Positions 3,037 to 29,789 of a DNA stretch of 31,646 nucleotides are shown here, in pieces. The translations under genes were made by a program, and so were the position numbers. The notes below the pieces were generated by a model. That model was not told the origin of the DNA. It ran no database searches and saw only the letters and a list, made by a program, of their open reading frames with translations. Position 1 is the stretch's first letter, and the number at the start of each line of letters is the position of its first letter. Origin of the DNA: a virus; IMG/VR virus record IMGVR_UViG_3300035161_000096, positions 1 through 31,646 of that record; one strand, given 5' to 3'.

Positions 3037-3392
3037 CCCCCGATCAATTTGAATTCCCAGGATTCCCGACGCCGGCCGAACAGGCCCGAGACCAGGGCAT
3101 CAACCAGGTGCTGGAAAACAACAGTCAGTGGGCTGTGCTCGTCATGTGCTGGTTCCAGCAGAACTGGCTGCCTTCCAAGCCGCACGGGTTCGAGTTCATT
3201 GGAGAGGATTTCCGCCGCGAAGCCTCAGCCTGCGGGATCCCCCAACCCCGACATCACAACGCTTGGGGCGGCATCTTCTCCCACATTTCCCGGCATCCAG
3301 AAATCGAGAACACCGGGCGAACGCGCCAGATGCGCGACGTCAGTTCCCACGCCCGGCGCAGTTTCATCTACCGCAAAAAAGAACCAGCATGA
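3033..3392 (+). CDS. Small protein coupled to the primase-helicase
   Basis: This 119-aa protein has no function I recognise. It starts inside the helicase stop (ATGA) and its own stop overlaps the next start in the same way, so three genes are translated in series. The centre holds a helical stretch (GEDFRREASACGIPQP) followed by RHHNAWGGIFSHI, a His/Trp-rich segment, and the C-terminus is basic (HARRSFIYRKKEPA). The position suggests a replication accessory role, for example helicase loader or DNA-binding partner, but this rests on context only. Confidence 0.7.
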   Translation: MTPDQFEFPGFPTPAEQARDQGINQVLENNSQWAVLVMCWFQQNWLPSKPHGFEFIGEDFRREASACGIPQPRHHNAWGGIFSHISRHPEIENTGRTRQMRDVSSHARRSFIYRKKEPA

Positions 3393-4118: not shown

Positions 4119-4670
4119 ATGAACTCCCACCCAACCAGAATCAACCTCGGCTGCGGCTCCGACCTTCGCCCCGATTGGATCAATATCGACGCCTCCCAAA
4201 CCTACCACCCCGACCTAGCCCTCAACCTCGAACACGACTCCCTCCTCCCCCACTTCCGCGCCAACTCCGTCCACCTCGTCCTCGCCCAAGACATCCTCGA
4301 ACACCTCTACCGCTTCCGCGCACTCCACGTCTGCCAGGAAATCTTCACCCTCCTCATCCCAAAAGGCCTCCTCGTCACCCGCATGCCCAATACCCGCCTC
4401 ATCATCGATGCACCCATCGAATTCTCCCGAAAAATCCCCTACCTCTACGGAGGCCAGGACGTCCCACAACAAGACGACGCCATCAAAAAACAAGTCCGAA
4501 AAAGCCGGCCAGACCTGTTCGCCCACAAATTCGGCTGGGACCCAGATACGTTCCACATGGAACTTTCCAAAATCGGCTTCGTCGACATCGTCCAGGTCAC
4601 CGAGTGGCCTAATTTCACCACCAAAGCCTACAAACCTTCCACCCTTGAAAAATCGCCCAACATGGAGTAA
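4119..4670 (+). CDS. Class I SAM-dependent methyltransferase
   Basis: The 183-aa protein has the Rossmann motif I INLGCGSDLRPDWINIDAS at residues about 8-26 (glycine-rich loop plus the acidic residue that holds the ribose of S-adenosylmethionine). AQDILEHL lies near residue 58, where D-x-x-E-H is typical of Methyltransf_11/COG4627-like enzymes. The substrate is not visible; small molecules, glycans and proteins are all used by this group. There is no target-recognition domain or N/D-P-P-Y motif, so a DNA base methylase is unlikely. Codons are strongly C-ending and the plus strand here is C-rich. No clear Shine-Dalgarno site precedes ATG 4119. It leads a short plus-strand group with three small genes. 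Confidence 0.75.
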   Translation: MNSHPTRINLGCGSDLRPDWINIDASQTYHPDLALNLEHDSLLPHFRANSVHLVLAQDILEHLYRFRALHVCQEIFTLLIPKGLLVTRMPNTRLIIDAPIEFSRKIPYLYGGQDVPQQDDAIKKQVRKSRPDLFAHKFGWDPDTFHMELSKIGFVDIVQVTEWPNFTTKAYKPSTLEKSPNME

Positions 4671-5527: not shown

Positions 5528-5917
5528 TCATTCGGGGACCAGGAGAGGTCCCGGCTCGGCCCGGCGACGGGGTGCCGACGGCCGATAGGCCCCAGGTGCT
5601 GGCCTGCCGGCAAGGGTGCGTTCGACCTCGCTTAGCCGGGCAGCTGCAGCTGCCAACCGGTCGAGTCGCTGCGGGTCAAGTTCGAGCAAGAGCATGCCAT
5701 CGATTCGGTCCAATTGCGCACGCACCCGGGCAAGTCGCTGGGCAACGTAGGCATCGCTCGGCAGCGGGTTTTGTGCGGCCTGTCGGATGCGCTCTTGTTC
5801 CTCAGCTTGGCGCAGTTGTTCAGCTGCCTTTTTCCTGCGGCGGGACTCGGCGGAACGGAGCGCCATGAGCCGGGCGTTTTCGGGGGTGAACTGATGCTTG
5901 CCGTTAGCGGGGAGCAT
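5528..5917 (-). CDS. Basic coiled-coil hypothetical protein
   Basis: This 129-aa protein is the last gene of the leftward integrase operon. It opens with FTPENARLMALRSAESRRRKKAA, a pattern seen in small phage DNA-associated proteins. A charged coiled coil follows (EQLRQAEEQERIRQAA, then RLARVRAQLDRIDGMLLLEL), and the tail is Pro/Arg-rich. DNA binding by the N-terminal basic segment is plausible. It resembles the small-terminase-like or HTH-less proteins found near phage control regions, but no family is certain. It is separated from the previous gene by about 165 nt that contain a short hairpin. Confidence 0.55.
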   Translation of the reverse strand: MLPANGKHQFTPENARLMALRSAESRRRKKAAEQLRQAEEQERIRQAAQNPLPSDAYVAQRLARVRAQLDRIDGMLLLELDPQRLDRLAAAAARLSEVERTLAGRPAPGAYRPSAPRRRAEPGPLLVPE

Positions 5918-8127: not shown

Positions 8128-9270
8128 TTACACGTTGAATTTGTCGGGAGTCAGGGACCAGAACATCTCACAGTGCTGCGGCTTGACCGGCTGCAGGTAG
8201 TGTTTGAGGACGATCACAACGGAGTTGCCCATCTCGCTTGCGGTCATGGCGTGATCGCGAACCAGTGAGCTGTAGTAGCTGCCGAACGAGTGGCGCATAA
8301 CGTCATGAGGCCATTCCTCCCACCCCAGATGCGTGCGCAGGGGGGCGAGCTCGCTGTACTTGCCAGAGGCGAAGTCTGCCCCGATTTTGCAGCCCCACTC
8401 CTGAGCCAATCGCACCCAGGCCACCGCAGTCGCATGCATGTGAATGATGCGGGGACGGTCGACCTTGGTGATCCAGGCAGGCAGGTGGATGAGCCCCTCG
8501 TCGACGTTGACCATCGACCAGTCCATGCGATTCAGCTCTTCCGGCCGGATGCCGCAGTAAGTGCCGAGAACAAAGTAGCCCAACAGTTCCCGGGCCTGGG
8601 TGGTGATGAACTGCAGCGCACTCTGCATTTGGTCAGGCGTGAAGATCGTAACCTCCGAATATTTGATCTTCTGTTTGGGGATGCCCTTGAGCAGAAACTC
8701 CTGGCAGTATTTCTGATCGTGACAGTAACCGAAAAAGGAACGCGCAGCGTCCCGGTGGTTATTGTAGGTGTGCCGCTGAAACTGACTGAGCCAGGAGACA
8801 ATGTCCTGCCGGGTGACTGAGCTCACGGGTTGCGTTTCCCGGCCCCTCGCGAACCGCCGGATCCACCGGTCAGAGTTCCCGACGTGAATTTCGGAGTTGC
8901 CCCGCGACTTGAGCATGGCAACCCATTCCCGCCCCGCTTTCTCCAGGGTGACCTGCAGGCCTCCGTTGCCATTCCCGTTTCCGTTCCCGTTGCCCTTCCC
9001 CGCCAGCCACTGATCGATCATCTGGTTCAGGGTGACGTCCAGTTGCCGGATCCGATCATAGCCGGTCACCAAGTCGGTGCGTTCTGCGGTGGTGAGAGCA
9101 AGCCATCCCTCCCCGGCCTTGCGTGCGATCTTGCGCTCCTCATCGGCGGCACGCTCGGCGTCGGCGCGAGATTTGAAGAAACGGCGCTTCCGTTTTCCTC
9201 CCTCAGGTTTCCAGTCGAGCACGTAGCGGGTGCCCTCTCGTTTTCCCTCTTTTCGGATGTTCAATTTCAT
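8128..9270 (-). CDS. int: Tyrosine recombinase (phage integrase)
   Basis: The 380-aa enzyme should catalyse site-specific integration and excision. Residues about 1-70 look like an Arm-type DNA-binding domain (RYVLDWKPEGGKRKRRFFKS), residues 105-200 a SAM-like core-binding domain, and 215-370 the catalytic domain. R242 in GIRPEEL, R326-H327 in DVMRHSFGSYY and the nucleophile Y358 in KHYLQPV are visible, with H357 before it. The usual first His of H-x-x-R is an Asp here, as far as I can align it. A Gly-Asn repeat linker (GNGNGNGNGNGG) near residues 92-103 joins the first two domains. I prefer ATG 9270; an in-frame TTG lies at 9288. A strong promoter lies at 9325-9353. Confidence 0.9.
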   Translation of the reverse strand: MKLNIRKEGKREGTRYVLDWKPEGGKRKRRFFKSRADAERAADEERKIARKAGEGWLALTTAERTDLVTGYDRIRQLDVTLNQMIDQWLAGKGNGNGNGNGNGGLQVTLEKAGREWVAMLKSRGNSEIHVGNSDRWIRRFARGRETQPVSSVTRQDIVSWLSQFQRHTYNNHRDAARSFFGYCHDQKYCQEFLLKGIPKQKIKYSEVTIFTPDQMQSALQFITTQARELLGYFVLGTYCGIRPEELNRMDWSMVNVDEGLIHLPAWITKVDRPRIIHMHATAVAWVRLAQEWGCKIGADFASGKYSELAPLRTHLGWEEWPHDVMRHSFGSYYSSLVRDHAMTASEMGNSVVIVLKHYLQPVKPQHCEMFWSLTPDKFNV

Positions 9271-9324
9271 GTCGTTCTTTCGGTTCAATGTTTACTGCTA
9301 TTTCCACCTCCATGCGGCAGTCAA

Positions 9325-11478: not shown

Positions 11479-11708
11479 TGAAAAAACCGACGCTGAGCGA
11501 GGCTGCTGCTCTTTTGGGTCGCAAAGGAGGCAAAGCCGGCGGTAAATCCAAGAGTCGCACCGGCATCTCGGAGCGGATGAAGGCATGGTGGGCGAGTCCC
11601 GCCGCTGCCCATCGGCGCAAGAAGAAAAAGGCGAGCTATGTCGAGGAAACCTACGTTGAAAACGATCAGCATAAAGGTCATGGAAGCGTGTTATCTGGAA
11701 GACATTGA
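11478..11708 (+). CDS. Small Lys/Gly-rich basic protein
   Basis: The 76-aa product begins MKKPTLSEAAALLGRKGGKA, then GGKSKSRTGISERMKAWWAS and a run of HRRKKKK. GRKGGKAGG is typical of small basic phage proteins that may bind nucleic acid. It overlaps the upstream stop (TGATG). Its last 23 codons overlap the next gene in another frame, which is unusual here; the true gene could be read through both. Function unknown. Confidence 0.5.
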   Translation: MKKPTLSEAAALLGRKGGKAGGKSKSRTGISERMKAWWASPAAAHRRKKKKASYVEETYVENDQHKGHGSVLSGRH

Positions 11709-11916
11709 ACGGATACTTGGCTGCGGGTGCACCCAGCCGGGCTGTGATTGCGCCAAAACGGACACCCTCTATGTCCGCTCAAAATGCCACCCCAAAGCTC
11801 CGATAGACGTTGTTCTGAAAGCTGGCACCGGAGTGGTGCTGGTGATGTGCCGGGAGTGCAGTCAGCCCATCATCGCTGTGGCCATTGCCTCGCGTCTCAG
11901 ACCGGAGAACAACTAG
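11638..11916 (+). CDS. Cys-rich zinc-binding-type small protein
   Basis: The 92-aa frame has AAGG 7-8 nt before ATG 11638; a second in-frame Met (MEACYLED) would trim the basic start. The body carries eight Cys: CYLEDIERILGCGC, QPGCDCAKT, SKCHPKAP and CRECSQPI. Two zinc sites are possible. A C-x-H-P-x-A-P-x-D-V-V segment and C-x-E-C-x-x-P-I end resemble small phage zinc proteins of unknown role. Overlap with the preceding gene is 71 nt. Confidence 0.6.
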   Translation: MSRKPTLKTISIKVMEACYLEDIERILGCGCTQPGCDCAKTDTLYVRSKCHPKAPIDVVLKAGTGVVLVMCRECSQPIIAVAIASRLRPENN

Positions 11917-12449: not shown

Positions 12450-15400
12450 TCAGTAGGTTCGCGTTCCTTTTTGCCCCCGGCCGGATGGTTCGTAGGTGTT
12501 GACGCCAGCCCCAAACTGGTTCAACGCCTCGAGGATCATGCCCTCGGTCCATCCCCGGTCTCTGAGGATTTCCGCTATGCCTGCAAACGGCAGCGGGATC
12601 ACCAGGTCCTCGGTCACGCCAGCCACTGTCAGCGGTTCTCCTCGGAAATCCCCTCGGCTGGCGAGGTCTAGCGCGATGCCGATATCGGGGCGCACCTTGC
12701 TGCGGAGGAACCGCGCCAACACAACGCCCAGGTCAGGTTGGCCATACTTGCGCTTGGCGGTCAGGTCGTAGGTGTTGCCCTTGAGCGACTTGGTTTTGCC
12801 GGTAGCCAGCCTGGACATCAGCACGACCATCTGCTGGAGACCTCCCCAAATGTCGATGCGAGTATTGCCACGCACGATCTTCCCGTAATCTGAGGACAAC
12901 GGACTGCGCTCTTTCTTTTCGTCAAACATGCTGGCCACCAGAGCGAGCAAAAAGCCCGTCCCGATTACCCGGGCGTATTCTTTGGCGATGATTTTGCGAG
13001 CCCGGGCGGAATTGCGGAGCTGGCCCCCACCCCAGAGAGGTTGTCCAAGGAGGAACTGCAGCCGGCTGACCAAAAGTTTCGGGGCCCAAAACACCTGGGC
13101 TGCGGCCTGGGCACTGGCAGGATTCATCGCGCCACGACCTGTGGCGACGTTCACCCAGTTCCCCAGGATCCTCAGTTCGTTTTCGGTGGGGACCTCCCCC
13201 TTGAAATTCAAGTCGAGGAGTTCATCCCAGAGGGTGGCTCGGGTTGCGTTCAGGAACGTCGCAAACGCTCGATTGGATCCGGCCACGCTCTTTGCAACCC
13301 ACTTGCCCGGCATGAGCGCAATGTTCTTGATCGGCTTGCCTTTCTCCCACCAGGGGACCAGAGCCCACTCATCAAAAAGCGACTTTGCGGTTTCTTCCGC
13401 TTTGGTGAATCGCGGGGTGTCGATGCTAGTGAAGGCGATGTTGCCGATTCGATCCGCTCCCGATTGGGCATTGGGACGTTGCTTGAGGGTGTTCTCAATC
13501 TGCAACGCCCAGTCTCTGCGCATCGCAGCCCTGAACATCTGGTAGAAAACCTTCCCGATTTTCTTGGGCATCTGAATCGGAGAGGTCGGCACCCGACTGG
13601 CCAGGGAGGCCATGGCAATGAGGCCTTGGCGTAAACCAGAGAAGTCGAACGAACTTTTCAAGTTCACCATGGCCTGCCGGGCGGCTTTAATTCCCGCGCC
13701 GACTTTCTCCAAGCCCGTCTTTTGCTCCCATCGATCCTGGGCCAATGCCAGGTAGTAGTCGTTGACCACCTTGTCCCGCTCAGCCAACAGTCTGATCGCC
13801 TCGGGGCTGCTCGAGAGGTCGGTAGGCGCAGGACGTTGGCGCGGCTTGAAATCGCGGTTTGCGATTCGATCCTGATAGTCGGCAATCTGTCGGCGCAACT
13901 GGGCCATTCGGTGGGTGATGGCCAGCTCGAGAGGACTGGGCTTGGCGGGGCCCAGACGTTCTCGCATCTCCTTGCGTTGCTGTTTGAGGTCCTCGAGTCT
14001 GGCGGCCAGACGCTGATTGCTCGGCTTATCCTCGGCGCGAACCTTCTTCCCGGGCCCAAATGGATTCTGATCGGCCAACTGCTGCTCGATCTTGCGGATC
14101 GATTTATCCAGAGCGAACCACCGTTTGATATCAGCTGGCTCAGTCAGGTCAGGGGGCGGGTTGAGTTGGCGTTGAGCCCATTCCTGCTCAGCCTTGAGCT
14201 GCACGATCCTGGCGCGAAGAGCCTCGAGCTTGGCGCTGCCCTGTCGGCTGGGCTTTCGACTCAGTGTGCTGCGACCTTCGGCCAGGTCCTTCTCCATCCG
14301 CGCAATGATCCGTTCAGCTGCTGCCTCGGCCAATGCCAGACGTTGTTCTGGAGTCAGGCCTGGGCGAACGAAGATCTGCCGGTGCTGCTGGCGCACCTCT
14401 TCGTATTCAGCCTTCAAGGCTTCGAGTTCTGGGTCCGTTCTGGGCGGATAGGTGGTGCGGTTGATGAGCTCTCGGTTGGCGATTTCCACCCTGAGGTCGG
14501 CAATCCGGTTGCGGTAGTAGGTTTTCCGCGAATCCAGATAGCTCTGGAGTTGTGCGCCAGAGTCGGAAATCAGCTCTCCGACTTTCTTCTTGAGCTCGGT
14601 GAATTTCTTGGTCAGCCGGCGTTGCTCGTCAGTCGGTTTGTCGCGGAGGAAACCAGTCGGCGGTGGCTTGCGAGGCGGTTCAGCCTCCAAGTCGAGAACG
14701 TGTGCAGCCAGGCGAATCTGGGCTTTGAGATCGCGCATTGTGCGCGGGACCAAACCAGGATCAGGAACCCGATAGCGACCTCGGCCAGAGATGGCATCCA
14801 TGACCTGCTCTCGATCCAAGAGCGGCGTCATTTGAAGCTGGGTCATGACTTCGTTGAGCACGGCATGGACTCGGTCAACGAGTTGGTCTCGATTGATGAG
14901 CGGATCCTGGGTGATGATCACCCGAATCAGAGCCTGCACCGGGTAGTAAAGCTCATCACTGGCAGTCTTTGCTGGCTCAGTGGTGTTCCTTCGTTGCTCC
15001 AGAACCTTGCCCAATTTGACCTTGGCCAGCTCGAGTTCCTCCTCGGGAGTCGGGTCCCTTCTGGCTGGCGGGGCCGGCCGGGCCGGCTGCCCTGGCGGCT
15101 GAGGTGGCGAAACTGTGGGTTGCCCGGGGGCAGGCTCGCCCGGGGCAGGCCTGACCGGGACTTTTCTCGGAGCGCGGCGTCGTGCAATTTCGGCGCGACC
15201 AGTTGCTAGCTCTGCCGCGAAGTGAGCTTCTGCTGCTGCGCGAGCGGCCGGGAGATATGGGCGGATGAACTCACCGGTCTCGTTGACCATCGCATCGTTC
15301 CACGCAACCTCCTCCGTGATGTTGGCCGCCAGCTTGGCACCTCCCATAATGGCCAGCTCGCGCAGCAAATCGTCAGGCAATGGCGGGACTTCTTCGCCCA

Positions 15401-18400
15401 CGCTCGCACGCAGGGGTTGGTCTGGATGCAGCCGTTGCCATTTTACTTTGAATCGGTCTCGAGCGTTTTTGGCCTTCTTGTTGTAGCTGTCGATCCAATC
15501 CTTGGCATACTGGAGCACTGATGGATTGATGGCCGCCAGCTCGGCTCTGGCTGCAGCTATCTCGGCATCGACATCGCGTTCGCGAAGCTTGCGGTTCTCG
15601 GCCTCCAGCTGTTCGTTGATCTTCTTGTAACGAGCAGCCGTTTTGGCCAGTTCCTTCATTTCATCATCGGTCAGATCCCTCCAACCAACGGCCTCCCGCT
15701 TCTTGTTGATCAAAGATGCGAGAGTGAAATCCCAGTTCAGCGCCAGCTGGCGAGCTCGGAATGCCCGGCCAGCTTCGGTGCCTGCGCGGTAGGTGACCTC
15801 GGCCAATTTCTCCAAGGCTTTCCCCCAGAACTGCGCATTCTGGGCATGCACGGCCGCGAAGTCGGGGCGACCAGCCTGATCTGCCTGGGCCTGGAGATCG
15901 GCCTCCTGCTCATACATCTGCCTCAGTTGAAGCATCCACCAGTCGAGCGCCAGGGTTTCCTCGTCGGAGAGCAATCCCGGTTGCTTGAGCTCACGGTCGA
16001 CGATGCTGTCCACCCAGCCGGGTTGTTGGGCCATTCGCGCCTGGACGTTCCTCAACAGTTCAGCGTCGGGCTTGCCCAGCATCTCCTCCCGGGTTGGCAG
16101 GCCGGCCTTTGCCAGGGCAGCGTCCATGTCCTCAAACTTGATAGCCAGAGGCGTAACCGAGTAGCGGAAGAATTCCTCATCATGCTGTTTGATGGGATCT
16201 TCGGTCTCAGGGAACGTCGCCACCCCACGGGTTGTCGGAGGCCTCGGGAGCGATTGTCCTGCCGGCTCGGGGAGCGCCGTGCCCCCCTCAGAAACTGAAA
16301 GGCGAGTTGTGTCGGGCAGAATCGGAGTGGTAGTTCTGCGCTCGGCCAAGGCAGCGACTGGGTCCTCGGCATATTCCAACTGCAAAGCAGTCAACCTGTC
16401 CCAGGTCGCATCTTCATAAGCTGGGTTTTTGGCGACCTCTTCTCGATAGGTCATGAGGTCATCTGCCATCATGTTGACCAGCTTGGATGAGGTCTTGATG
16501 ATGTTGCCCCTGGCCCCGCCGTACAGGTCTTTCTTCTTTGCCCAGGCCTCCATCAACTGCCCAAACACCTTGCGGTCGAACACAGGTTGCAGGGGAAGTT
16601 GGGGTGTGTCTGTGCGAGCGTAATCCTTGAGCAGCTTCGCGGCATTGGGGTCCTCGTTCCCGTCCGCATCGTACATGAACCGCTGGAATTGCAACTCGAT
16701 GCCGTATCGCTCAGCGTCAGCCAGTGCATTGGCCACTATGTCGCCGTCGGACATTGCCTGGCCTTGGAGGAACCAACCAATGGTCCAATGCGGCTCATAC
16801 GCGGTGCCGTATCGCTCGGTCCACTCCTTCTCGAACCGGGCATACCGTTTCGGGTCGATGACTTTGTAACGCTGTTCGCTCTCAAAGTTCTGCCAGCCCT
16901 GCTGTTTGACGTAGGCGTCAAACTGGTTTTTGTACATCCCGCTCCGGTGGTAGGGGATGATCTGACCAATGTGCGGGTGCTTCATCGCCCACCGCACCTG
17001 ATCATCATTGAACGCAACAAAGACGATCCCGATGTTGGAGTTCTTCTTCTTGAGCCGAATGGCCTCGTCCCATGGAACCGAGTTGCCCTGCCATTCTTTG
17101 ATCTGGCCGTCTTTTCCAATCACCGGCACCCAGCTGAGGTTGATCTTCATGTTGCTCTTGGCGAGCAACAGAGCTGTATCGAGCTGCTTGGTGTAGGTAT
17201 GCCCTGGCAGGCCTTGGCCCGATGCATCAGTAATGGCCTGCAAGATGTCAACGGCATGCTCGAACAGGAAATCACTGAAAGAGTAGAACCGCAGGCCTCC
17301 CTGGACAATCTGGCGGCCCTTCTGCCAATCCTTGATGTATCGGTATTGCCCGGTGTAGCTCTGCCGTTCAAACACCAGGTTTGCGTTCTGAATCGACTGC
17401 AGGTGGATGGCGTTGTAGAGATTCGGGTACTGGTTCAGGTGGCTATTGGGATCTGCCTCTGCAGCATCCCATCTCGCCTGATCGATGAACACCGAATGAT
17501 CGATGTCCTCAGGACGCACCCCAGCTCGGATTGCATCTCGGCGGATCCGTTTGATGTTGGGCTTGGGGTTGAGCATTCCCTCGGTCAGGTCCTCCTCGGC
17601 AATTTCCTGGCCAGTCAGCCATCTGGACCACAGGCCTGCATATTTGCCCCGCAAAGCTCTGCGCGTTTCCACGTAGCAGAGAACACACATGCGGGGCATT
17701 CCGGCCACCACAAGCCGGGTGAGCACAATCTCACGCTCAGCGGGGCTTAGGTCGCTAGCAACTCCGCGCTTCACCAATTCATCGGTGATAGCGTTGAGGT
17801 ACTCTTGGGCCGGCAATCGCAGTGTGCAGATGCCTGATCCGTCCCAGGTCCAGATGTAGTCTGCATTGGGACGAACAGTCCCGCCTCCGACGCCCCGCGC
17901 CCGGGTCCCCACTGGGAACTCCTCGAGCAAGCCCAGCTTCTTGGCCAGGGCAGCGTTGAGAAGCGCCACCTGGTCGAGATCAGCCAGCCATCGATTTGCT
18001 GTAGCCTCATCGACCAAACCACCTTTGGTGATCTGATTGACGGCATCCTGTCTCCACCCATCGTAATCGCGGATGGAGAACCGGGTCATGACTTCGCCAT
18101 CGGTCTCTGAGTTGCGCAGATCAGCCAAGCCGGTCTTGGGATTGTCGGTCACCTCGTCAGCGGAGAGGCGCGTAATCGATCCAAAAGTTCTGGGCTTGCC
18201 AGTCTTGGCCGTCGTGGCAGCCTCTTCTGCTCCTCTTTGGCCCCGGGCAATCAGGCGAGCAATCTCAACGTCACTGTATTTGAGCGGCAAGCCAAACCTG
18301 CGCATCACACTGCGGATGGTGGCTGCTATTCGTTTCCAGATTGGGTTGCTCTTGCCCTCGGCTGCTACTCTCTCCGCTTCATAGGCGAGCCATTCTTCAC

Positions 18401-20759
18401 CTATGGTGCCCCGGTCGGTTGGTGTGATTCTGTTTCTGACTGCGATCTTGGCACGGTCCTGGGCGCTCAATCCGCGCCAGATGTCCCTCACCAAGCGCGA
18501 GAATCGCTGCTGTCCCAAGGTTTCGCGAAGGCCCAGGTGAACGAAGGCCTCATGAACGACCTTCTGGTAGACCAAAGTCGGATTGCCCGTCGGGAATTTG
18601 CTCGCATTGAAGATGACGCGCCCGTTGTGGTAAACGGCATCCAGAGCATCCAGGCTGAAACCCCGGTCCCTCAACTGCTGTTTCACAGCGTCTGGCAGAT
18701 CCTCGGCCGTATCGACGACCTCCAGGTTGGTCAGGGAAGGGAACAGTCGGGCCAAGGTGGTCCGCAATCCAAGGCCTCGATTTGTCTTCGGAGCGGGTGC
18801 CGTCGGTGGTCCTGGTGGGGCCGGCGTAGGCGTAGTGGCCGGGGCTGGAGTCGGGGCTGGAGTCGGGGCTGGAGTCGCGCCAGGAGCAGCCGGCGTAGGT
18901 GCGGGGGCAGAAGGTGCCCCGGGTGTCTCTGGGACGGGTTGAGGGGCCGTCTGCGCAGCCGGGGCTGGCTGCGCCACCGTTTCCGGTGGAGGTGTCACTG
19001 GAGTTTCACCCGGGGCAATTGGGGCCTCAGCCTCGAGGGGAGGTGGGGCAAGTGGTTCCACAGCGGGAGCAGGGGCTGGCTCCACGGTGGGAGCAGCAGG
19101 CACTGCAGTAGCTTCGGTGGCCACCTGACGAGCAGCTGCTTGTGTAGGGCTCACCTCCACAGGAGCAGGGGCAGTCTCGGCTCCAACCTCAGGCACCGTA
19201 AGATCCAGGGGCACTCTGGGCTGCCCAACCATGGCAGCTGCAGTTTGCTCGAGGCCAAGCGAGAGGGCTTGATTGACGATTTGCGCTCCTTCAACCCCCT
19301 CGACGGGCGGCAAGAGTCGCTGTGCTCGGGCTATGCGGGGCCCAGCTGGGCGCTCGACCGGCACTGCCATGGGGCCCTGCGGTGTCTGGAACGTGATTTC
19401 GACTGGCTGATCTTGCTGCTCGATTGCATGCCGAATCCCCAGCTCGAACGCTCTCTGCTCTTCGGCTTTTTTGAACTTCTCCCTGGTCAACCCAAGGCTT
19501 TCGCCGGCAAGCGTAATCGTCCCCCCGGCTATTGCTCCCTGAATCGCAGCCTCAAGTCGCTCTTCAGCATTGCCGTAACCATTCCAGAAGGTCTCCCAGA
19601 ATTTGCCTTGAGCTTCTGGATCTTGGGAGATTCGGGCAGCCTGTTCGATGGCTGTCTGCAGATATTCAGTGGGCCCCTCAGTGAGCGCCCCCTCAAAGCC
19701 AGCCACGCCCAGTCGAACCAGGCCTTTCTCCATGACGGCATCGCCAAGGGTGCTGCGAACGAAAGCCTCGACTGGACTTCTGACGGGCGTTGTTCCTACC
19801 CCTGCACGTCGGAGAACCAACAAAGGCGTAATCGCCTCGAGTGATCCGGCGGCCAGACCTCCTGCAAATGCCACCATAGCCGGCACCGGGCCCTGAATGC
19901 CATTGGCCACCATGTCAGAATAGATGGACCCGGTTTCAATCGCCGTCGATCCCGCGATTACCCCGCCAATTTCGGCTGCTGCGATTTTCCTGCTGCTCGC
20001 CGCGAGTGCCTGCTCGATCAGTTCCTTCTCGAGGCCCCGAGTGATCATTTTCTTGGCGACCGCACCACTCACACCTCCGGTCACCAAGCTGGGCACCATC
20101 GTCGGAATGTTTTGCGTGAGAGCCTCAACACCGTAGGTGAGGCTTTGGCGTAATCGAGGGAGCGCCCCTTTGTAGCCGGATTCGTATCCCTTGCCGATTC
20201 TCTTAAAGGTTCCAATGGCCGCCGGATTGGCTTCGATCTGTGCCTGATTGGCCATCCACTTGTCTCTCAGCCACGCTTTGAGACGATCCGCGCCAACCAG
20301 ATCTGACCCCCACATGCCCAGGCCATAGCCCAGGCCTTGCACCTGGTCGATGCCGCGCATCACGCCGTCCCATGCGTTGGCCCCCGCACCGGTCAGCTCT
20401 CCGTTCTCATCGAAATACTTCTCAAGCGCCCTCGGATCTCCTTCAAGTAGAGCATGGGCGTCTTCATCCATCTGTTCTACGGTCGCACCGATGATCGGAG
20501 AGATGGCCCGTCTCAGCTTATCCCTGCCCCACATCCAGAGCGTTTTGGGTTTGGGTTCGTAGGCCGTGATCTGCGGCTGCTCGATGACAGTTACTCGTTG
20601 CTGCTCCTCGGGCGTCAGGTCTTCTAGGTCATCGGCGGTTGGTGAATCACTCCAAGTAGTGTCTCGAGTTGGCAAAGGAACAACCATCTCGATATCCTCG
20701 AGCTCTTCCGGCCGGATATTCTGGAGTTCCTCTGGCGTCAATGTTGTGGGAGGAGGCAT
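12450..20759 (-). CDS. Giant 2769-aa polyvalent ejection-type protein
   Basis: One of the largest proteins one would expect in such a phage, most likely packaged and ejected with the DNA. Residues about 200-420 form an Ala/Gly-rich membrane-active-type segment (E-T-G-S-I-Y-S-D, then LTEGPTEYLQTAIEQAA). Residues 530-660 are a Pro/Ala/Thr linker. A zincin-like site H736-E-A-F-V-H741 with E788-E789-W790 follows. Residues about 880-1400 hold a domain with CVLCYVE (C1025, C1028) and C978, ending in IIPYHRSGM. Two long helical regions and a second Pro linker (1866-1898) come next. The C-terminal 350 residues carry a hydrophobic helix (TGFLLALVAS) and GNTRIDIWGGLQQ. Parts match domains I recall from large polyvalent phage proteins. 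GGAG precedes the ATG by 6 nt. Confidence 0.75.
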   Translation of the reverse strand: MPPPTTLTPEELQNIRPEELEDIEMVVPLPTRDTTWSDSPTADDLEDLTPEEQQRVTVIEQPQITAYEPKPKTLWMWGRDKLRRAISPIIGATVEQMDEDAHALLEGDPRALEKYFDENGELTGAGANAWDGVMRGIDQVQGLGYGLGMWGSDLVGADRLKAWLRDKWMANQAQIEANPAAIGTFKRIGKGYESGYKGALPRLRQSLTYGVEALTQNIPTMVPSLVTGGVSGAVAKKMITRGLEKELIEQALAASSRKIAAAEIGGVIAGSTAIETGSIYSDMVANGIQGPVPAMVAFAGGLAAGSLEAITPLLVLRRAGVGTTPVRSPVEAFVRSTLGDAVMEKGLVRLGVAGFEGALTEGPTEYLQTAIEQAARISQDPEAQGKFWETFWNGYGNAEERLEAAIQGAIAGGTITLAGESLGLTREKFKKAEEQRAFELGIRHAIEQQDQPVEITFQTPQGPMAVPVERPAGPRIARAQRLLPPVEGVEGAQIVNQALSLGLEQTAAAMVGQPRVPLDLTVPEVGAETAPAPVEVSPTQAAARQVATEATAVPAAPTVEPAPAPAVEPLAPPPLEAEAPIAPGETPVTPPPETVAQPAPAAQTAPQPVPETPGAPSAPAPTPAAPGATPAPTPAPTPAPATTPTPAPPGPPTAPAPKTNRGLGLRTTLARLFPSLTNLEVVDTAEDLPDAVKQQLRDRGFSLDALDAVYHNGRVIFNASKFPTGNPTLVYQKVVHEAFVHLGLRETLGQQRFSRLVRDIWRGLSAQDRAKIAVRNRITPTDRGTIGEEWLAYEAERVAAEGKSNPIWKRIAATIRSVMRRFGLPLKYSDVEIARLIARGQRGAEEAATTAKTGKPRTFGSITRLSADEVTDNPKTGLADLRNSETDGEVMTRFSIRDYDGWRQDAVNQITKGGLVDEATANRWLADLDQVALLNAALAKKLGLLEEFPVGTRARGVGGGTVRPNADYIWTWDGSGICTLRLPAQEYLNAITDELVKRGVASDLSPAEREIVLTRLVVAGMPRMCVLCYVETRRALRGKYAGLWSRWLTGQEIAEEDLTEGMLNPKPNIKRIRRDAIRAGVRPEDIDHSVFIDQARWDAAEADPNSHLNQYPNLYNAIHLQSIQNANLVFERQSYTGQYRYIKDWQKGRQIVQGGLRFYSFSDFLFEHAVDILQAITDASGQGLPGHTYTKQLDTALLLAKSNMKINLSWVPVIGKDGQIKEWQGNSVPWDEAIRLKKKNSNIGIVFVAFNDDQVRWAMKHPHIGQIIPYHRSGMYKNQFDAYVKQQGWQNFESEQRYKVIDPKRYARFEKEWTERYGTAYEPHWTIGWFLQGQAMSDGDIVANALADAERYGIELQFQRFMYDADGNEDPNAAKLLKDYARTDTPQLPLQPVFDRKVFGQLMEAWAKKKDLYGGARGNIIKTSSKLVNMMADDLMTYREEVAKNPAYEDATWDRLTALQLEYAEDPVAALAERRTTTPILPDTTRLSVSEGGTALPEPAGQSLPRPPTTRGVATFPETEDPIKQHDEEFFRYSVTPLAIKFEDMDAALAKAGLPTREEMLGKPDAELLRNVQARMAQQPGWVDSIVDRELKQPGLLSDEETLALDWWMLQLRQMYEQEADLQAQADQAGRPDFAAVHAQNAQFWGKALEKLAEVTYRAGTEAGRAFRARQLALNWDFTLASLINKKREAVGWRDLTDDEMKELAKTAARYKKINEQLEAENRKLRERDVDAEIAAARAELAAINPSVLQYAKDWIDSYNKKAKNARDRFKVKWQRLHPDQPLRASVGEEVPPLPDDLLRELAIMGGAKLAANITEEVAWNDAMVNETGEFIRPYLPAARAAAEAHFAAELATGRAEIARRRAPRKVPVRPAPGEPAPGQPTVSPPQPPGQPARPAPPARRDPTPEEELELAKVKLGKVLEQRRNTTEPAKTASDELYYPVQALIRVIITQDPLINRDQLVDRVHAVLNEVMTQLQMTPLLDREQVMDAISGRGRYRVPDPGLVPRTMRDLKAQIRLAAHVLDLEAEPPRKPPPTGFLRDKPTDEQRRLTKKFTELKKKVGELISDSGAQLQSYLDSRKTYYRNRIADLRVEIANRELINRTTYPPRTDPELEALKAEYEEVRQQHRQIFVRPGLTPEQRLALAEAAAERIIARMEKDLAEGRSTLSRKPSRQGSAKLEALRARIVQLKAEQEWAQRQLNPPPDLTEPADIKRWFALDKSIRKIEQQLADQNPFGPGKKVRAEDKPSNQRLAARLEDLKQQRKEMRERLGPAKPSPLELAITHRMAQLRRQIADYQDRIANRDFKPRQRPAPTDLSSSPEAIRLLAERDKVVNDYYLALAQDRWEQKTGLEKVGAGIKAARQAMVNLKSSFDFSGLRQGLIAMASLASRVPTSPIQMPKKIGKVFYQMFRAAMRRDWALQIENTLKQRPNAQSGADRIGNIAFTSIDTPRFTKAEETAKSLFDEWALVPWWEKGKPIKNIALMPGKWVAKSVAGSNRAFATFLNATRATLWDELLDLNFKGEVPTENELRILGNWVNVATGRGAMNPASAQAAAQVFWAPKLLVSRLQFLLGQPLWGGGQLRNSARARKIIAKEYARVIGTGFLLALVASMFDEKKERSPLSSDYGKIVRGNTRIDIWGGLQQMVVLMSRLATGKTKSLKGNTYDLTAKRKYGQPDLGVVLARFLRSKVRPDIGIALDLASRGDFRGEPLTVAGVTEDLVIPLPFAGIAEILRDRGWTEGMILEALNQFGAGVNTYEPSGRGQKGTRTY
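18841..18876 (-). repeat. Three perfect 12-nt tandem repeats in the giant gene
   Basis: The plus strand reads GGGGCTGGAGTC three times in a row. On the minus strand these encode part of the Pro/Ala/Thr linker (repeats of T-P-A-P). Such repeats can change length by slippage, so the linker may vary between relatives. Confidence 0.85.
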
Positions 20760-23013: not shown

Positions 23014-24033
23014 TCAAATCATGGTTGAAAGTCCAATTCGACGAAACGAGGCCTGCTGGAGTGAATCCACGACCACTGCGGGTTGCTCGATGCCGAGGTA
23101 ATGATCCATCTCCTGCTTCAAAAGTTTGATTGCCCGTTTTTCATGGGTGATTGCCATCTCCTGCGCGGCCGTTACTTCTTGGCTGTAGCCTCGCAGAGCT
23201 TGGCACATTTCGGCCAGAGCCGGCAGGTTACCGATGATGAGCGGGTCTGAATCCCGAATGGCTGGAATGAACTCGAGCTTGGCCAGAGCGGTGACCGTGT
23301 AGCTGCTGCAGCTGGTGCACAGAGGGCTGATGTAATACCGGCGATAGGCAGGATTGGTTTCACTGGCCAGGTATCGAGACAACAGGACCTGCTCCCCACT
23401 TGTCTGGTCTACCTGATAAAGCAGAACATCGCCATAGGTGAGGGGCTTGACCACAGCTGTGATTTTCGACACATCAAAGATCGAATCTGCAAACGGGTTC
23501 AGGAACGTCAGGTAAAACCCCGTCGCGGTGTTCAACCCGTCCATGTCGTAAATGGTGTTCCCGTTCTGATCCAGCGCAACGAACAGCATCTTCATGCCCT
23601 CGTCGCGAGGGTCGGTGATGTAGACGCGCAGCCGTTGGTTGGTTTCGGTCAAATCAACCTTGGTTGGCCAGACGCCCCGTTCGTAACCGGCCACCGATCC
23701 GCACCAATCGGAGCAGCAAGGTGTATCGGGCATCGGCCCCGGGCCGCCGGGGAGGACCTCGTAGAATTCGTTGTGGATGTAGATGGGTTGCTCGCAGACC
23801 GCCATGTTGATCACCCTGGCGAATTCCCTCGGCAGTGTGATGTATGGCGCGGCGGCCGTGACCGAGAACCTGGTTTTGACCCAACCCTCCCACCAACCCG
23901 CATCCTTGCCGGCATATATCAGCCGTTGCTGCGCGTCATTGACAATCGCAGCCAGGCGGTATGTGTCGTCTGCGCAGATTCCGAGAAGCTCTGGGATTCT
24001 GCTCAGCTTGACGTTTTTGAGTGTGATTCTCAT
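23014..24033 (-). CDS. Tail adaptor/tube-A-like structural protein
   Basis: The 339-aa protein begins with a helical segment typical of adaptor or tail-tube-A proteins (DDTYRLAAIVNDAQQRLIYA). A WWEGW turn and YITLPREFARVINMAVCEQP follow, so the N-terminal half should sit at the portal-tail joint in a short-tailed phage. A Cys-rich loop (TPCCSDWCGS) and another (PLCTSCSSY) are unusual in such proteins. The C-terminal third is helical (SQEVTAAQEMAITHEKRAIK). It overlaps the upstream gene by ATGA. T7 gp11-like function is an inference from pattern and order. Confidence 0.55.
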   Translation of the reverse strand: MRITLKNVKLSRIPELLGICADDTYRLAAIVNDAQQRLIYAGKDAGWWEGWVKTRFSVTAAAPYITLPREFARVINMAVCEQPIYIHNEFYEVLPGGPGPMPDTPCCSDWCGSVAGYERGVWPTKVDLTETNQRLRVYITDPRDEGMKMLFVALDQNGNTIYDMDGLNTATGFYLTFLNPFADSIFDVSKITAVVKPLTYGDVLLYQVDQTSGEQVLLSRYLASETNPAYRRYYISPLCTSCSSYTVTALAKLEFIPAIRDSDPLIIGNLPALAEMCQALRGYSQEVTAAQEMAITHEKRAIKLLKQEMDHYLGIEQPAVVVDSLQQASFRRIGLSTMI

Positions 24034-25682
24034 GGGACGATATCGAGCTTGATGATCATGGTAGCTTGGCCTCCTCCATACAGGTTGCTAGGACTGCACG
24101 GCCCACAGGTGCTTCCTACACCATGAGAAAAGGCTCCATGCCAAGTCGAGGCACCAGGCGGGATGGGGAAGAGGAAAGGTCCATACACGCCAGGACCAAC
24201 GGGCGTAATGCTGTTGGCGTAAACAATGGCTCCACCATCAGTCCGTTCCAATAGGTACGCGGTGCCTGCAAACCCCCACTGAACCCCTGGACATGGCTCT
24301 GGCGGTATTCCATTAATCCGCAACTGCGTAACGAGCAGACTTCCTATGATCGTGTCAGGTGTCGGATTGAAGCAGTTCCAAGTAAACCCTGCCTGTGCCG
24401 TGCCCCCACTGGCAACGCAAGTGCCACCAGGATCCAAAACAAACAACTCAACATTCTCACCACTACCAGTTGCCGAGGCGGAACCATTGCCGTATGGAAT
24501 GGCCGCGAAGGTCCATGGAATGCTGCCAAAGATGTTGGGATCGATTGTCAGGGTAAACTCTTTTGTGCAGCTGGCATCGTACAGATCAGTGACCACGATG
24601 CTGAAAGTGTAGGTCCCGTAACCCGTAGGAGTCCCCGAGATGACACCTGTGTTCCCATCAAGGACCAACCCATCGGGCAGTGAGTCGCCCGATTTAACGG
24701 CAAAGGTCTTGGGATCCCAGCCTGCTTGGGTGCTGATCGCGTGGCTGTAGGCCTCGTCCTGCTGCGCATTGGGTAGCACATTGGGCTCATCAATCTCCAT
24801 GACCGAAACACGGTAAACGCGATAAGTGTAGGTTCCGTTCGCATCGGTCAACGTCAGGCGGAATCCCCACAGCCCAGCGATGGTGAATTGCCCGTAGATC
24901 CGCATGGCAATTCCGTTGGGCTCGAAATTAATGCCCGGTGGCAGCGCCCCGAAAACCTCCCACTCTAGTGGGTACTCAAACGCTCCGGTACGATCAGGGA
25001 CAATGAATTGGTCGATGCTCTCATCTTTGCAGACGCTCTTTGGGAATGGGATGAGGCACCCGACGTTGTTGCTGAGAAGATTCTCGGCCACCCCCCTGGC
25101 TTTTTCATTGGCTGAATCCTTGTTTGAGCCCCAGACATAGCAAGCCGGCAGCACGATTCCCTTGCCCCCCTCGAAACAAGCCACCTCGACCTTGATCTCA
25201 TCATTGCACGCTTTTCCATTGGGTGGATTTGGGAAACGCAGAACCGGCGTCGGGCCCGGGTTGGGATTGTCGGGGCAGAGAATCGAATCACAAAGCTGGG
25301 TGAGGTAATCATCCGCCCAGTCTGCAGCGAGCGCATCGGCCTGGGCCTGCGATTCAGCGTAGAAAACCCCCTCGGGTATCGTGGCCGAATATTGGTTCCC
25401 ATCGCAGCAGGTGCGATAAAAGGTGTTGGCCGTGTTGGGGAAGAGTTTGTCGCGTTCGCAGATCTGAGCGTTGTTCTGGGCGCAAAGATCAGCCGCAGCC
25501 TGCGATTCCTCGGAAACACAGAGGCCCAGGCAGGCAATCCATGGCCCCTGATCATTATCCCAGACCTGATTGGGGAAGTAGGTCGACCTAAAAAGCAGCC
25601 GATCTGGATCTTCGGAAGAATAATTTCCGAGAGAGTTTGCATCGTCGATGCACGGCGCTTTGGTTGGACATGGCATGTTCAT
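24030..25682 (-). CDS. Cys-rich tail fibre with putative Ig domains
   Basis: The 550-aa protein has about 21 Cys, many in pairs, which is unusual for a phage fibre. An N-terminal region repeats S-x-E-S-Q-A-x-A-D motifs (VSEESQAAADLCAQNN, YAESQAQADALAADWA), like DUF5977-type repeats. Residues about 230-390 form two putative Ig domains, with LPPGINFEPNGIAMRIYGQF and GLVLDGNTGVISGTPTGYGT, the second a clear He_PIG-type signature. The C-terminal part is beta-rich. Ig-like repeats in phage tails often serve surface binding. It lies between the propeller-like and adaptor-like tail genes. Disulfide bonding would need an oxidising step or extracellular assembly. Confidence 0.6.
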   Translation of the reverse strand: MNMPCPTKAPCIDDANSLGNYSSEDPDRLLFRSTYFPNQVWDNDQGPWIACLGLCVSEESQAAADLCAQNNAQICERDKLFPNTANTFYRTCCDGNQYSATIPEGVFYAESQAQADALAADWADDYLTQLCDSILCPDNPNPGPTPVLRFPNPPNGKACNDEIKVEVACFEGGKGIVLPACYVWGSNKDSANEKARGVAENLLSNNVGCLIPFPKSVCKDESIDQFIVPDRTGAFEYPLEWEVFGALPPGINFEPNGIAMRIYGQFTIAGLWGFRLTLTDANGTYTYRVYRVSVMEIDEPNVLPNAQQDEAYSHAISTQAGWDPKTFAVKSGDSLPDGLVLDGNTGVISGTPTGYGTYTFSIVVTDLYDASCTKEFTLTIDPNIFGSIPWTFAAIPYGNGSASATGSGENVELFVLDPGGTCVASGGTAQAGFTWNCFNPTPDTIIGSLLVTQLRINGIPPEPCPGVQWGFAGTAYLLERTDGGAIVYANSITPVGPGVYGPFLFPIPPGASTWHGAFSHGVGSTCGPCSPSNLYGGGQATMIIKLDIVP

Positions 25683-27923: not shown

Positions 27924-27984
27924 ACGCTAGGTTGTGATAGGCAGTTTTCACTGTGGTCTGGTCACGCTGTGACGACTAGCGTAT
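27922..27984. promoter_or_regulatory. Inverted repeat in the virion/terminase divergent region
   Basis: ATACGCTAG at 27922-27930 is a perfect inverted partner of CTAGCGTAT at 27976-27984. Between them GTCAC-GCT-GTGAC (27961-27973) is a second, inner palindrome. The region separates the minus-strand virion operon from the terminase and is the natural place for a regulator that turns on both. The left arm overlaps the ATG at 27923. No clear -35/-10 pair was found. Confidence 0.5.
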
Positions 27985-28004
27985 TACGTCTGCAGTTAGT
28001 ATCT

Positions 28005-29789
28005 ATGCCACCAGAGCGGATCTGCAAGTATAATGCATTCTGGCCCCCTGAGGCGACCGACCTCGCCATAGAGATGGCCTGCATTCAGCATGGAGGTCGC
28101 TGGACCAAGGAGGGGAGAGAGTGCGGCGAAGGCCTGGCGTACCACTACAACGCCATGCGGAAGATCCTGTGGCCGCACCTCGATGATCATCGATGGAACC
28201 GGCTCTGTCTTGATGAGATCACCAACAGTAAGATCACGGTGCTCATGGGGGCCGGGTCAACCGGGAAGACGCACACTGCTGCTTGGTGGGCCCTCTGTGA
28301 TTATTACTGCTTCCCCGATGTTACCTGTGTGCTGATCTCCTCCACCGATCTGCGGGGGCTCGAGTTGCGCGTTTGGGGCGAGATCAAGTCCCTGCACGAT
28401 TTTGCCATCAACCGGTTCGATCTGCCGGGCCACATGGTCGAGAGCAAACACGCCATCAGCACTGACGTCATCGATGAGGCCAACATCCGCGACCTGCGCA
28501 AAGGCATCATCGGCATCCCCTGCGTCCAGAACGGAAAGTTTGTCGGGCTGGGCAAATACCTCGGGATCAAGCAACGCCGCATGCGGCTAATCGCGGATGA
28601 GGCCCAGTTCATGGGGGCCACCTTCCTCAATGCCTTCGCCAACCTGGACAAGAACGTCGATTTCAAGGCCATTGTCCTGGGCAATCCCAACGATGTTTTG
28701 GACCCCCTCGGGCGAGCTGCAGAGCCCAAAGATGGGTGGGGATCCCATCTCGAACCGGAGAAGACGGCCGTCTGGGATACCCGGTTCATGAATGGCCGAT
28801 GCGTGAATCTGATCGGCACCGACTCTCCGAATTTCGATGACCCCGAGGGCACCCCCACCCGCTTCCCCTACCTGATTTCCAGGGAGAAAATCGCCAACAC
28901 TCTGAGCTTTTTCCCAAAGGATTCTGCTGAGTATTACTCGCAGTGCATCGGTGCCATGAAAGTGGGCACCCTGTTGAAACGGGTTTTGACCCGGGATCTG
29001 TGCGTCAAGTTCCAGGCCAACTCTCGGGATCTGGTTTGGGATGGGCCCACAACCAAAATCGCCGGGCTCGATGCTGCCTATGGTGGGGACCGTTGCGTCA
29101 CTGGCTACATTGAGTTTGGCAAGGACACGACCGGCAAGACCATGTTGTTGGTTCATCCGCCAGTCCTGGTCCCCGTATCTGGAGGAGGAGGAGTTCCCCC
29201 AGAGGATCAGATTGCGGATTTCTGCAAATCATACTGCAGGCGCAACTCCATAGCCCCCGAGAATTTCTTTCATGACTCCACCGGGCGCGGCAGCCTCGGC
29301 ACTGCCCTGGCCAGGATCTGGTCAGCTCGATGCAACCCAGTTGAGTTTGGTGGATCCCCGACGACCAGGCCGGTCAGCCTCGATCTCTACATCTGGGACG
29401 ACAAAGAGCGGCGACGTCGACTCAAGCGATGCAACGAACACTACAGCAAATTCGTCACTGAGCTCTGGTTCTCGGTTCGCTACACCGTGGAGGCCGGGCA
29501 GATGCGCGGACTGCCCGAGGATGTCATGGAAGAGTTTTGCATGAGGGAATGGGAAAAGGTTCGAGGTGACAAAATCGAATTGGAATCGAAGCCAGACATG
29601 AAAGTCAGAGTGGGGCGTAGTCCCGACTTCGCAGACTGGTGTTCCATCTGCGTAGAAGGTGCCCGGCAACGGGGATTCTCCATCAGCCGGCTGGCCAACG
29701 CAGAATCCCTGCTTGCAGATCGGGAGTGGTTCCGTCGTCTGTCAGACAAAGCCAACACCCACAAAAGCCATGAACTGAGCTACAGCTAG
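28005..29789 (+). CDS. terL: Terminase large subunit
   Basis: The 594-aa product is the packaging motor and nuclease that cuts and drives DNA into the capsid. The ATPase part has Walker A GAGSTGKT (residues 82-89) and Walker B RLIADEAQ with D198-E199. The nuclease part has the acidic residues D356 in GLDAAYGGD, D424 in HDST and D541/D544 in SPDFADW, the layout of an RNase H-like fold. I prefer ATG 28005; an in-frame GTG at 27969 would add 12 residues. Neither has a Shine-Dalgarno site. The gene is alone on the plus strand between two minus-strand groups. No small terminase is recognised next to it. Confidence 0.9.
   Translation: MPPERICKYNAFWPPEATDLAIEMACIQHGGRWTKEGRECGEGLAYHYNAMRKILWPHLDDHRWNRLCLDEITNSKITVLMGAGSTGKTHTAAWWALCDYYCFPDVTCVLISSTDLRGLELRVWGEIKSLHDFAINRFDLPGHMVESKHAISTDVIDEANIRDLRKGIIGIPCVQNGKFVGLGKYLGIKQRRMRLIADEAQFMGATFLNAFANLDKNVDFKAIVLGNPNDVLDPLGRAAEPKDGWGSHLEPEKTAVWDTRFMNGRCVNLIGTDSPNFDDPEGTPTRFPYLISREKIANTLSFFPKDSAEYYSQCIGAMKVGTLLKRVLTRDLCVKFQANSRDLVWDGPTTKIAGLDAAYGGDRCVTGYIEFGKDTTGKTMLLVHPPVLVPVSGGGGVPPEDQIADFCKSYCRRNSIAPENFFHDSTGRGSLGTALARIWSARCNPVEFGGSPTTRPVSLDLYIWDDKERRRRLKRCNEHYSKFVTELWFSVRYTVEAGQMRGLPEDVMEEFCMREWEKVRGDKIELESKPDMKVRVGRSPDFADWCSICVEGARQRGFSISRLANAESLLADREWFRRLSDKANTHKSHELSYS

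What the first reader, a model, noticed from the sequence alone, without database searches (positions are those of the whole stretch)
12450..20759. 2769-aa polyvalent protein combining a zincin-like site and a Cys-motif domain
A single gene fills a quarter of the window. It holds a membrane-active-type N-terminus, H736-E-A-F-V-H741 with E788-E789, a separate domain with C978, CVLCYVE (C1025/C1028) and IIPYHRSGM, long helical regions and a conserved hydrophobic C-terminus. Parts recall domains that recur in large polyvalent phage proteins, proposed to be delivered into the cell with the DNA. The Cys domain has no function known to me; C-x46-C-x2-C could bind iron-sulphur or zinc. A new combination would be worth describing.
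Basis: partly seen in the sequence, partly recalled or inferred. Interest (0 to 1): 0.7.

Follow-up and report, generated by a model that had tools for sequence, protein, structure and literature searches.

The report
Giant phage protein with undescribed three-cysteine domain
A bacterial virus carries a 2769-residue protein, probably injected into the host with its DNA, that joins a known type of protease-like domain to a widespread but apparently undescribed domain built around three never-changing cysteines, probably a metal-dependent enzyme used at the very start of infection.

Summary
In detail: one 2769-aa ORF (12450-20759, minus) with HEAFVH at 736-741, EE at 788-789 and only three Cys in the whole protein (978, 1025, 1028). 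Residues 666-849 are a polyvalent-protein metallopeptidase of the HEXXXH subtype, already described in 2017 (92 bits to a model from 106 viral relatives; EE aligns with their conserved EE). Residues 952-1405 are a real, recurrent domain. I found it in 54 other IMG/VR contigs, inside giant proteins of up to ~6900 aa, with all three Cys invariant in 47/47 aligned members (C-x41-60-C-x2-C[FY]V). It matches nothing in Pfam, PHROGs or the PDB, and tblastn found none in INPHARED or PLSDB. Thirty of 36 relatives with enough upstream sequence carry a HExxH motif N-terminal to it, so the pairing is a theme rather than unique; variable spacing argues against one shared metal site. A confident AlphaFold model (pLDDT 92) of a relative shows a TIM-like beta/alpha core with invariant polar residues mostly at strand ends. 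Radical-SAM enzymes (QueE, PflA) lead the fold hits, but weakly, and profile comparison gives no support. Best reading: an ejected polyvalent virion protein carrying a new metal (perhaps Fe-S) enzyme domain. The metal and the reaction are inferred.

The parts
12450..20759 (-). 2769-aa polyvalent-type virion (ejection) protein gene
   Evidence: located downstream of head/tail-type genes, like its relatives
19470..20162 (-). aa 200-430: Gly/Ala-rich, moderately hydrophobic N-terminal region
   Evidence: hydropathy peak at 298-316; weak PHROG virion RNA polymerase hit E 0.043 over 213-437; N-terminal homologue in L228, E 4e-10
18780..19172 (-). aa 530-660: Pro/Ala-rich low-complexity linker
   Evidence: sequence; N4 vRNAP has a comparable 100-aa low-complexity linker after its N-terminal domain (PMC12633501)
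18213..18764 (-). aa 666-849: zincin-like metallopeptidase domain, HEXXXH subtype
   Evidence: 92.3 bits, i-E 1.8e-30 to a profile of 106 nonredundant viral relatives
18537..18554 (-). HEAFVH (aa 736-741), predicted Zn ligands and general base
   Evidence: aligned with HEalGHyGLR of relatives
18393..18398 (-). E788-E789, predicted third Zn ligand
   Evidence: aligned with the conserved EE of aEEvLAemA in relatives
16545..17906 (-). aa 952-1405: three-cysteine domain
   Evidence: 169.5 bits to a profile built without the window; 47-member family; AF2 models
17826..17828 (-). C978, invariant first cysteine
17676..17687 (-). CVLC (C1025, C1028), invariant second and third cysteines
16935..16961 (-). 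IIPYHRSGM (aa 1267-1275): last strand of the beta/alpha core, with invariant H1271
13800..16202 (-). aa 1520-2320: charged, probably helical region with a Pro-rich linker near 1868-1905
   Evidence: sequence; no family match
12453..13298 (-). aa 2488-2769: conserved C-terminal domain
   Evidence: 29.8% identical, E 3e-23, to the internal part (956-1250) of UOF78006.1 of MW202497.1
20763..27923 (-). upstream co-directional genes: 427, 318, 339 (weak SU10-adaptor-like), 550 and 745 aa; probable tail/virion module
   Evidence: position only for most of them
27969..29789 (+). terminase large subunit
   Evidence: phrog_2, E 5.8e-10

Best explanation
The gene encodes a polyvalent ejection (internal virion) protein: a string of loosely linked domains packed in the virion and passed into the host with the DNA. 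The N-terminus and conserved C-terminus serve packaging and translocation. The HEXXXH zincin (666-849) cuts the chain, or a host target, once inside. The domain at 952-1405 is a separate enzyme with a TIM-like beta/alpha core. Its three invariant Cys bind a metal centre near the active site, most likely an Fe-S cluster used in a radical-SAM-like way, and it modifies a host or phage macromolecule early in infection. Shown here: the domain boundaries, the family, the Cys invariance, the pairing with zincins, the structural-gene context of relatives. Predicted: the fold (AlphaFold). Inferred: packaging and ejection, proteolytic activity, which metal, the chemistry, the target.
For: Cys-domain family: 54 further viral contigs, all three Cys invariant, about 18 invariant residues in all. 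Confident model of a relative (pLDDT 92.3, pTM 0.90): invariant C62, C105 and C108 lie before beta2 at helix N-termini; R207/S210/D213, Y239/K241 and H323 sit at or just after strand ends; N257/S259 lie within a strand. That is active-site topology of a TIM-like barrel. Radical-SAM enzymes are over-represented among the top fold hits: PflA, QueE, SuiB, LIAS, BioB, DesII; QueE is rank 1 for the confident model. Zincin; its wider family carries ART-PolyVal, LPD1, LPD3 and PBECR1. A HExxH motif lies upstream of the Cys domain in 30/36 relatives. Virion context: relatives follow a T7-type internal virion protein (phrog_418, E 5.7e-18) and an endolysin-like protein (L022), terminase and portal (L025), or a major head protein and phrog_511 internal virion protein (L053); UOF78006.1 follows portal, capsid and stabilization protein. 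N4 vRNAP, an ejected giant protein, has the same plan: membrane N-terminus, low-complexity linker, enzyme, HExxH, helical C-terminus (PMC12633501).
Against: No fold hit reaches E 0.001 (best 0.075-0.1; TM 0.17-0.21 by query), so the radical-SAM resemblance may be generic TIM-barrel similarity. hhalign to PflA and QueE alignments is not significant (prob 0.6-3%, scores near the 95th percentile of shuffles), while QueE versus PflA scores 97.9% in the same test. The motif is not CX3CX2C. No proteomic evidence places any member in a virion. The model of the window's own domain is only moderate (pLDDT 76).
Confidence: 0.5

Rival explanations
1. The three Cys bind zinc (with a fourth ligand such as a His) in a structural role. 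The beta/alpha core is a non-redox TIM-barrel enzyme (lyase, hydrolase or transferase) unrelated to radical SAM.
For: C-x2-C pairs are typical zinc ligands. Fold hits also include phosphodiesterase, ThiE-like, aldolase and triosephosphate isomerase barrels. No profile link to radical SAM. No CX3CX2C motif.
Against: Exactly three invariant Cys lie in the beta1-beta2 region, where radical-SAM enzymes hold their cluster (topology read); an invariant fourth ligand was not identified beside them.
Confidence: 0.35
2. The Cys form disulphides or act as redox switches that lock the chain in the virion and open in the reducing cytoplasm.
For: The protein has only three Cys, all in this domain, and would pass from an oxidising to a reducing compartment.
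Against: An odd number of invariant Cys, and about 15 further invariant polar, glycine and aromatic residues, suggest a catalytic metal site rather than a disulphide.
Confidence: 0.07
3. A minor tail or purely structural protein; the enzyme-like domains are degenerate.
For: Location in a structural gene cluster; HEXXXH departs from canonical HEXXH.
Against: Catalytic-type residues are kept: zincin H, E, H and EE aligned with 106 relatives and 3 Cys in 47/47.
Confidence: 0.1
4. The Cys and the His/Glu residues form one composite metal site.
For: The domains are neighbours in this protein.
Against: HExxH-to-Cys-domain spacing varies from about 100 to about 1900 aa in relatives and no HExxH is found upstream in 6/36. 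Each region matches its own independent family.
Confidence: 0.02

Closest known systems
Polyvalent-protein zincin-like MPTases, HEXXXH set (Iyer et al. 2017, PMC5512222)
   Same: HEXXXH helix and downstream EE; long multidomain phage protein; relatives carry ART-PolyVal, LPD1, LPD3 and PBECR1
   Different: Here HEAFVH (V instead of the usual G before the second His) is followed by the three-Cys domain, not by the published partner domains
Coliphage N4 virion RNA polymerase gp50 (PMC12633501)
   Same: Giant ejected protein: membrane-type N-terminus, low-complexity linker, enzyme, HExxH domain, helical C-terminal region
   Different: No polymerase domain found here; the three-Cys domain lies after the zincin; domain order differs; PHROG hit only E 0.043
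UOF78006.1, 1582 aa, Caudoviricetes sp. MW202497.1
   Same: Homologous C-terminal domain (E 3e-23); follows portal, capsid and stabilization genes
   Different: HELGHH motif instead; matches neither the HEXXXH zincin profile nor the three-Cys profile
Radical SAM enzymes, notably QueE and pyruvate formate-lyase activating enzyme
   Same: Top-ranked though weak fold hits; three Cys between the first and second strands of a beta/alpha core; noncanonical spacings are known (QueE CX14CX2C, PhnJ, HmdB, ThiC; PMC4389238)
   Different: C-x41-60-C-x2-C spacing; no sequence or profile similarity; no GGE motif (GGxRxxSF[ST]D instead)

Membership tests
Polyvalent-protein zincin-like MPTase (HEXXXH set) | HEXX(X)H on a helix plus downstream Glu ligand | tested here: met
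   736-741 and 788-789 align with 106 relatives, 92.3 bits; HEXXXH described in PMC5512222
Polyvalent-protein zincin-like MPTase (HEXXXH set) | Proteolytic (or autoproteolytic) activity | not testable with these tools
   needs expression and an active-site mutant
Phage polyvalent / ejection protein | Large multidomain protein encoded among head/tail genes | tested here: met
   relatives L022, L025, L053 and MW202497.1; in the window only the terminase is a firm marker
Phage polyvalent / ejection protein | Packaged in the virion and delivered into the cell | not testable with these tools
   no proteomics
Phage polyvalent / ejection protein | Named LPD/ART/PBECR-type Pfam domains in the same chain (common, not obligatory) | tested here: not met
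   no Pfam match in the window protein; zincin relatives do carry them
N4-type virion RNA polymerase | Single-subunit RNAP domain | tested here: not met
   only a sub-threshold hit (E 0.043) over 213-437, in the N-terminal region of both; no Pfam RNAP hit
Radical SAM superfamily | CX3CX2C cluster motif | tested here: not met
   C-x46-C-x2-C here; x41 to x60 in relatives
Radical SAM superfamily | Detectable sequence/profile similarity | tested here: not met
   hhalign prob 0.6-3% to PflA and QueE; no Pfam radical SAM hit in 25 members
Radical SAM superfamily | (beta/alpha)6 partial barrel with Cys loop after strand 1 | tested here: inconclusive
   model topology is compatible but the best fold hit is only E 0.075-0.1
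Radical SAM superfamily | [4Fe-4S] cluster and SAM cleavage | not testable with these tools
   needs biochemistry

The most novel reading that the evidence does not exclude
The three-Cys domain is a new radical-SAM-like [4Fe-4S] enzyme family with a split cluster motif (C-x41-60-C-x2-C), borne by phage virions and injected into bacteria beside a protease, so that these phages begin infection with radical chemistry on a host macromolecule.
Probability: 0.22. Interest if true: 0.88.

Novelty: new variant of a known kind. Interest (0 to 1): 0.6.

Why it matters
Polyvalent ejection proteins are thought to be the first phage effectors inside a cell, yet most of their domains are uncharacterised. 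This one adds a conserved, enzyme-like domain with three invariant Cys that is missing from Pfam, PHROGs and the PDB, occurs in at least 55 viral contigs (window included), and usually travels with a zincin protease. An injected metalloenzyme, above all an Fe-S one, would be unusual and directly testable.

Tried and rejected
Single-sequence Pfam, PHROGs, NCBIfam and PDB scans of the protein found nothing useful. tblastn of the Cys domain against phages and plasmids: no match. Two GTDB genome scans found no confirmed relative, but they depend on short exact peptide patterns, so absence from cells is not proven. The first viral scan with the window sequence alone failed; the IIPYHRSGM pattern broke the case. 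The radical-SAM hypothesis was tested with profile alignments to PflA (A6) and QueE with column-shuffled controls: not supported. A single-sequence profile test of the window zincin against the HEXXH zincins of Cys-domain relatives was not significant; the HEXXXH family then gave a decisive match. A composite Cys + His/Glu site was rejected on variable spacing. A literature search found no paper describing the domain, within an open-access library only.

Full report
Observation. The window is a complete IMG/VR record of 31,646 bases (linear). The ORF at 12450-20759 (minus) encodes 2769 aa and is coding by codon-position composition.

Zincin. A DNA pattern for HExphi[GV]HxGLRxxLG matched at least 120 viral stretches, where scanning stopped; my own estimate of chance matches, from uniform base composition and an assumed collection size, is about one. 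A profile of 106 nonredundant hits matches window residues 666-849 with 92.3 bits. HEAFVH aligns with their HEalGHyGLR, and E788-E789 with aEEvLAemA. Three of these proteins scanned against Pfam carry PBECR1, or ART-PolyVal with LPD1 and LPD3, the domains named in the 2017 polyvalent-protein paper, which also describes a set of MPTases with HEXXXH (PMC5512222). That part is therefore a new member of a known kind. tblastn to isolated phages gives weak hits, including proteins of Bacteroides phages (best E 1e-4).

Cys domain. The window sequence alone found no relative. A pattern for IIPYHRSGM found two viral loci with the same domain, and iterative searches brought the total to 54 further contigs. 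In 47 aligned members the three Cys are invariant, with N, Y, R, GxR, S, D, Q, YxK, NxS, G and H. Spacing is C-x41 to x60-C-x2-C. A profile built without the window matches residues 952-1405 at 169.5 bits. No Pfam, PHROGs or PDB sequence match is significant. The one strong structural neighbour in the viral fold library is a large uncharacterised uncultured-phage protein (E 1.5e-20), evidently another member.

Modularity. The relatives are giant proteins (the longest open frame is 6940 aa, incomplete at the locus end). Thirty of 36 with at least 600 aa upstream hold a HExx(x)H motif N-terminal to the Cys domain, most with a downstream E-[VIL]-[VI]-x-[DN]-like pattern. L037 also carries MuF_C just upstream. 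Outside the Cys domain no region of the window protein is recognisably shared with these relatives by phmmer. Its C-terminus is instead shared with UOF78006.1, which matches neither the HEXXXH-zincin profile nor the Cys-domain profile. Constant ends and exchanged effector domains are what polyvalent proteins show.

Fold. AlphaFold2 of the window domain is moderate (pLDDT 76); of relative L053, confident (pLDDT 92.3, pTM 0.90). The core is a run of beta-alpha units (strands near 46-56, 206-208, 236-240, 255-265, 295-301, 318-321). The three Cys lie before the second strand at helix N-termini; invariant R/S/D, Y/K and H follow or end strands, and N/S lie within one. Foldseek against the PDB gives no match below E 0.001. 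Profile-profile comparison with PflA and QueE alignments is not significant, while QueE against PflA is (97.9%). Radical-SAM membership is therefore not claimed. An Fe-S or other metal centre remains the simplest reading of three invariant Cys beside an active-site-like set of residues.

Context and mechanism. In relatives the giant gene follows a T7-type internal virion protein and an endolysin-like protein (L022), terminase and portal (L025), or a major head protein and a phrog_511 internal virion protein (L053); in MW202497.1 it follows portal, capsid and stabilization protein. In the window it ends a co-directional run beside a terminase gene. N4 vRNAP, which is ejected through the tail, has a comparable beads-on-a-string plan (PMC12633501). 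I infer that the protein is packaged, threaded into the host, possibly cut by its zincin, and that the Cys domain then acts on a host or phage target. Packaging, cutting, metal identity and target are not shown.

Verdict. The zincin is known. The Cys domain is a real, widespread and, as far as these tools reach, undescribed domain of viral giant proteins. The pairing with zincins is general. E-values from searches against one protein are for that single target. Absence from cellular genomes rests on pattern scans only.

Noticed in passing
window 5550-5641 and 8128-9288: A tRNA-Gly gene and a tyrosine-type integrase (phrog_1, E 1.4e-18) near each other suggest a temperate phage or provirus; the attachment site was not examined.
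   Followed up: no
window 937-3036: Primase-helicase fusion (phrog_2597 E 1.4e-48; Pfam AAA_25).
   Followed up: partly
window 11638-11916: Small 92-aa ORF with clustered Cys (CGCTQPGCDC, CREC), possibly a zinc-ribbon protein.
   Followed up: no
window 24030-25682: 550-aa protein with a stretch resembling putative Ig-type repeats (LPDGLVLDGNTGVISGTPTGYGTYTFSIVVTD), read by eye only.
   Followed up: no
L031 giant ORF aa 1269, L048 giant ORF aa 2617, also L104 and L111: Several Cys-domain giant proteins carry a recurrent GHEGRHRMRAL-type motif, perhaps a ParB-like domain rather than a zincin.
   Followed up: no
L037:5420-15814, aa 1341-1434: Pfam MuF_C domain (E 5.8e-9) directly upstream of a Cys domain.
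   Followed up: no
L228 minus-strand ORF of 1398 aa starting at 3334: Shares the window protein's N-terminal region (E 4e-10) and lies on a HEXXXH-zincin locus; it may be the closest overall architecture.
   Followed up: no
window 4119-4670: 183-aa ORF resembling a class I SAM-dependent methyltransferase (NLGCGSDLRPDWINIDAS), by eye only.
   Followed up: no
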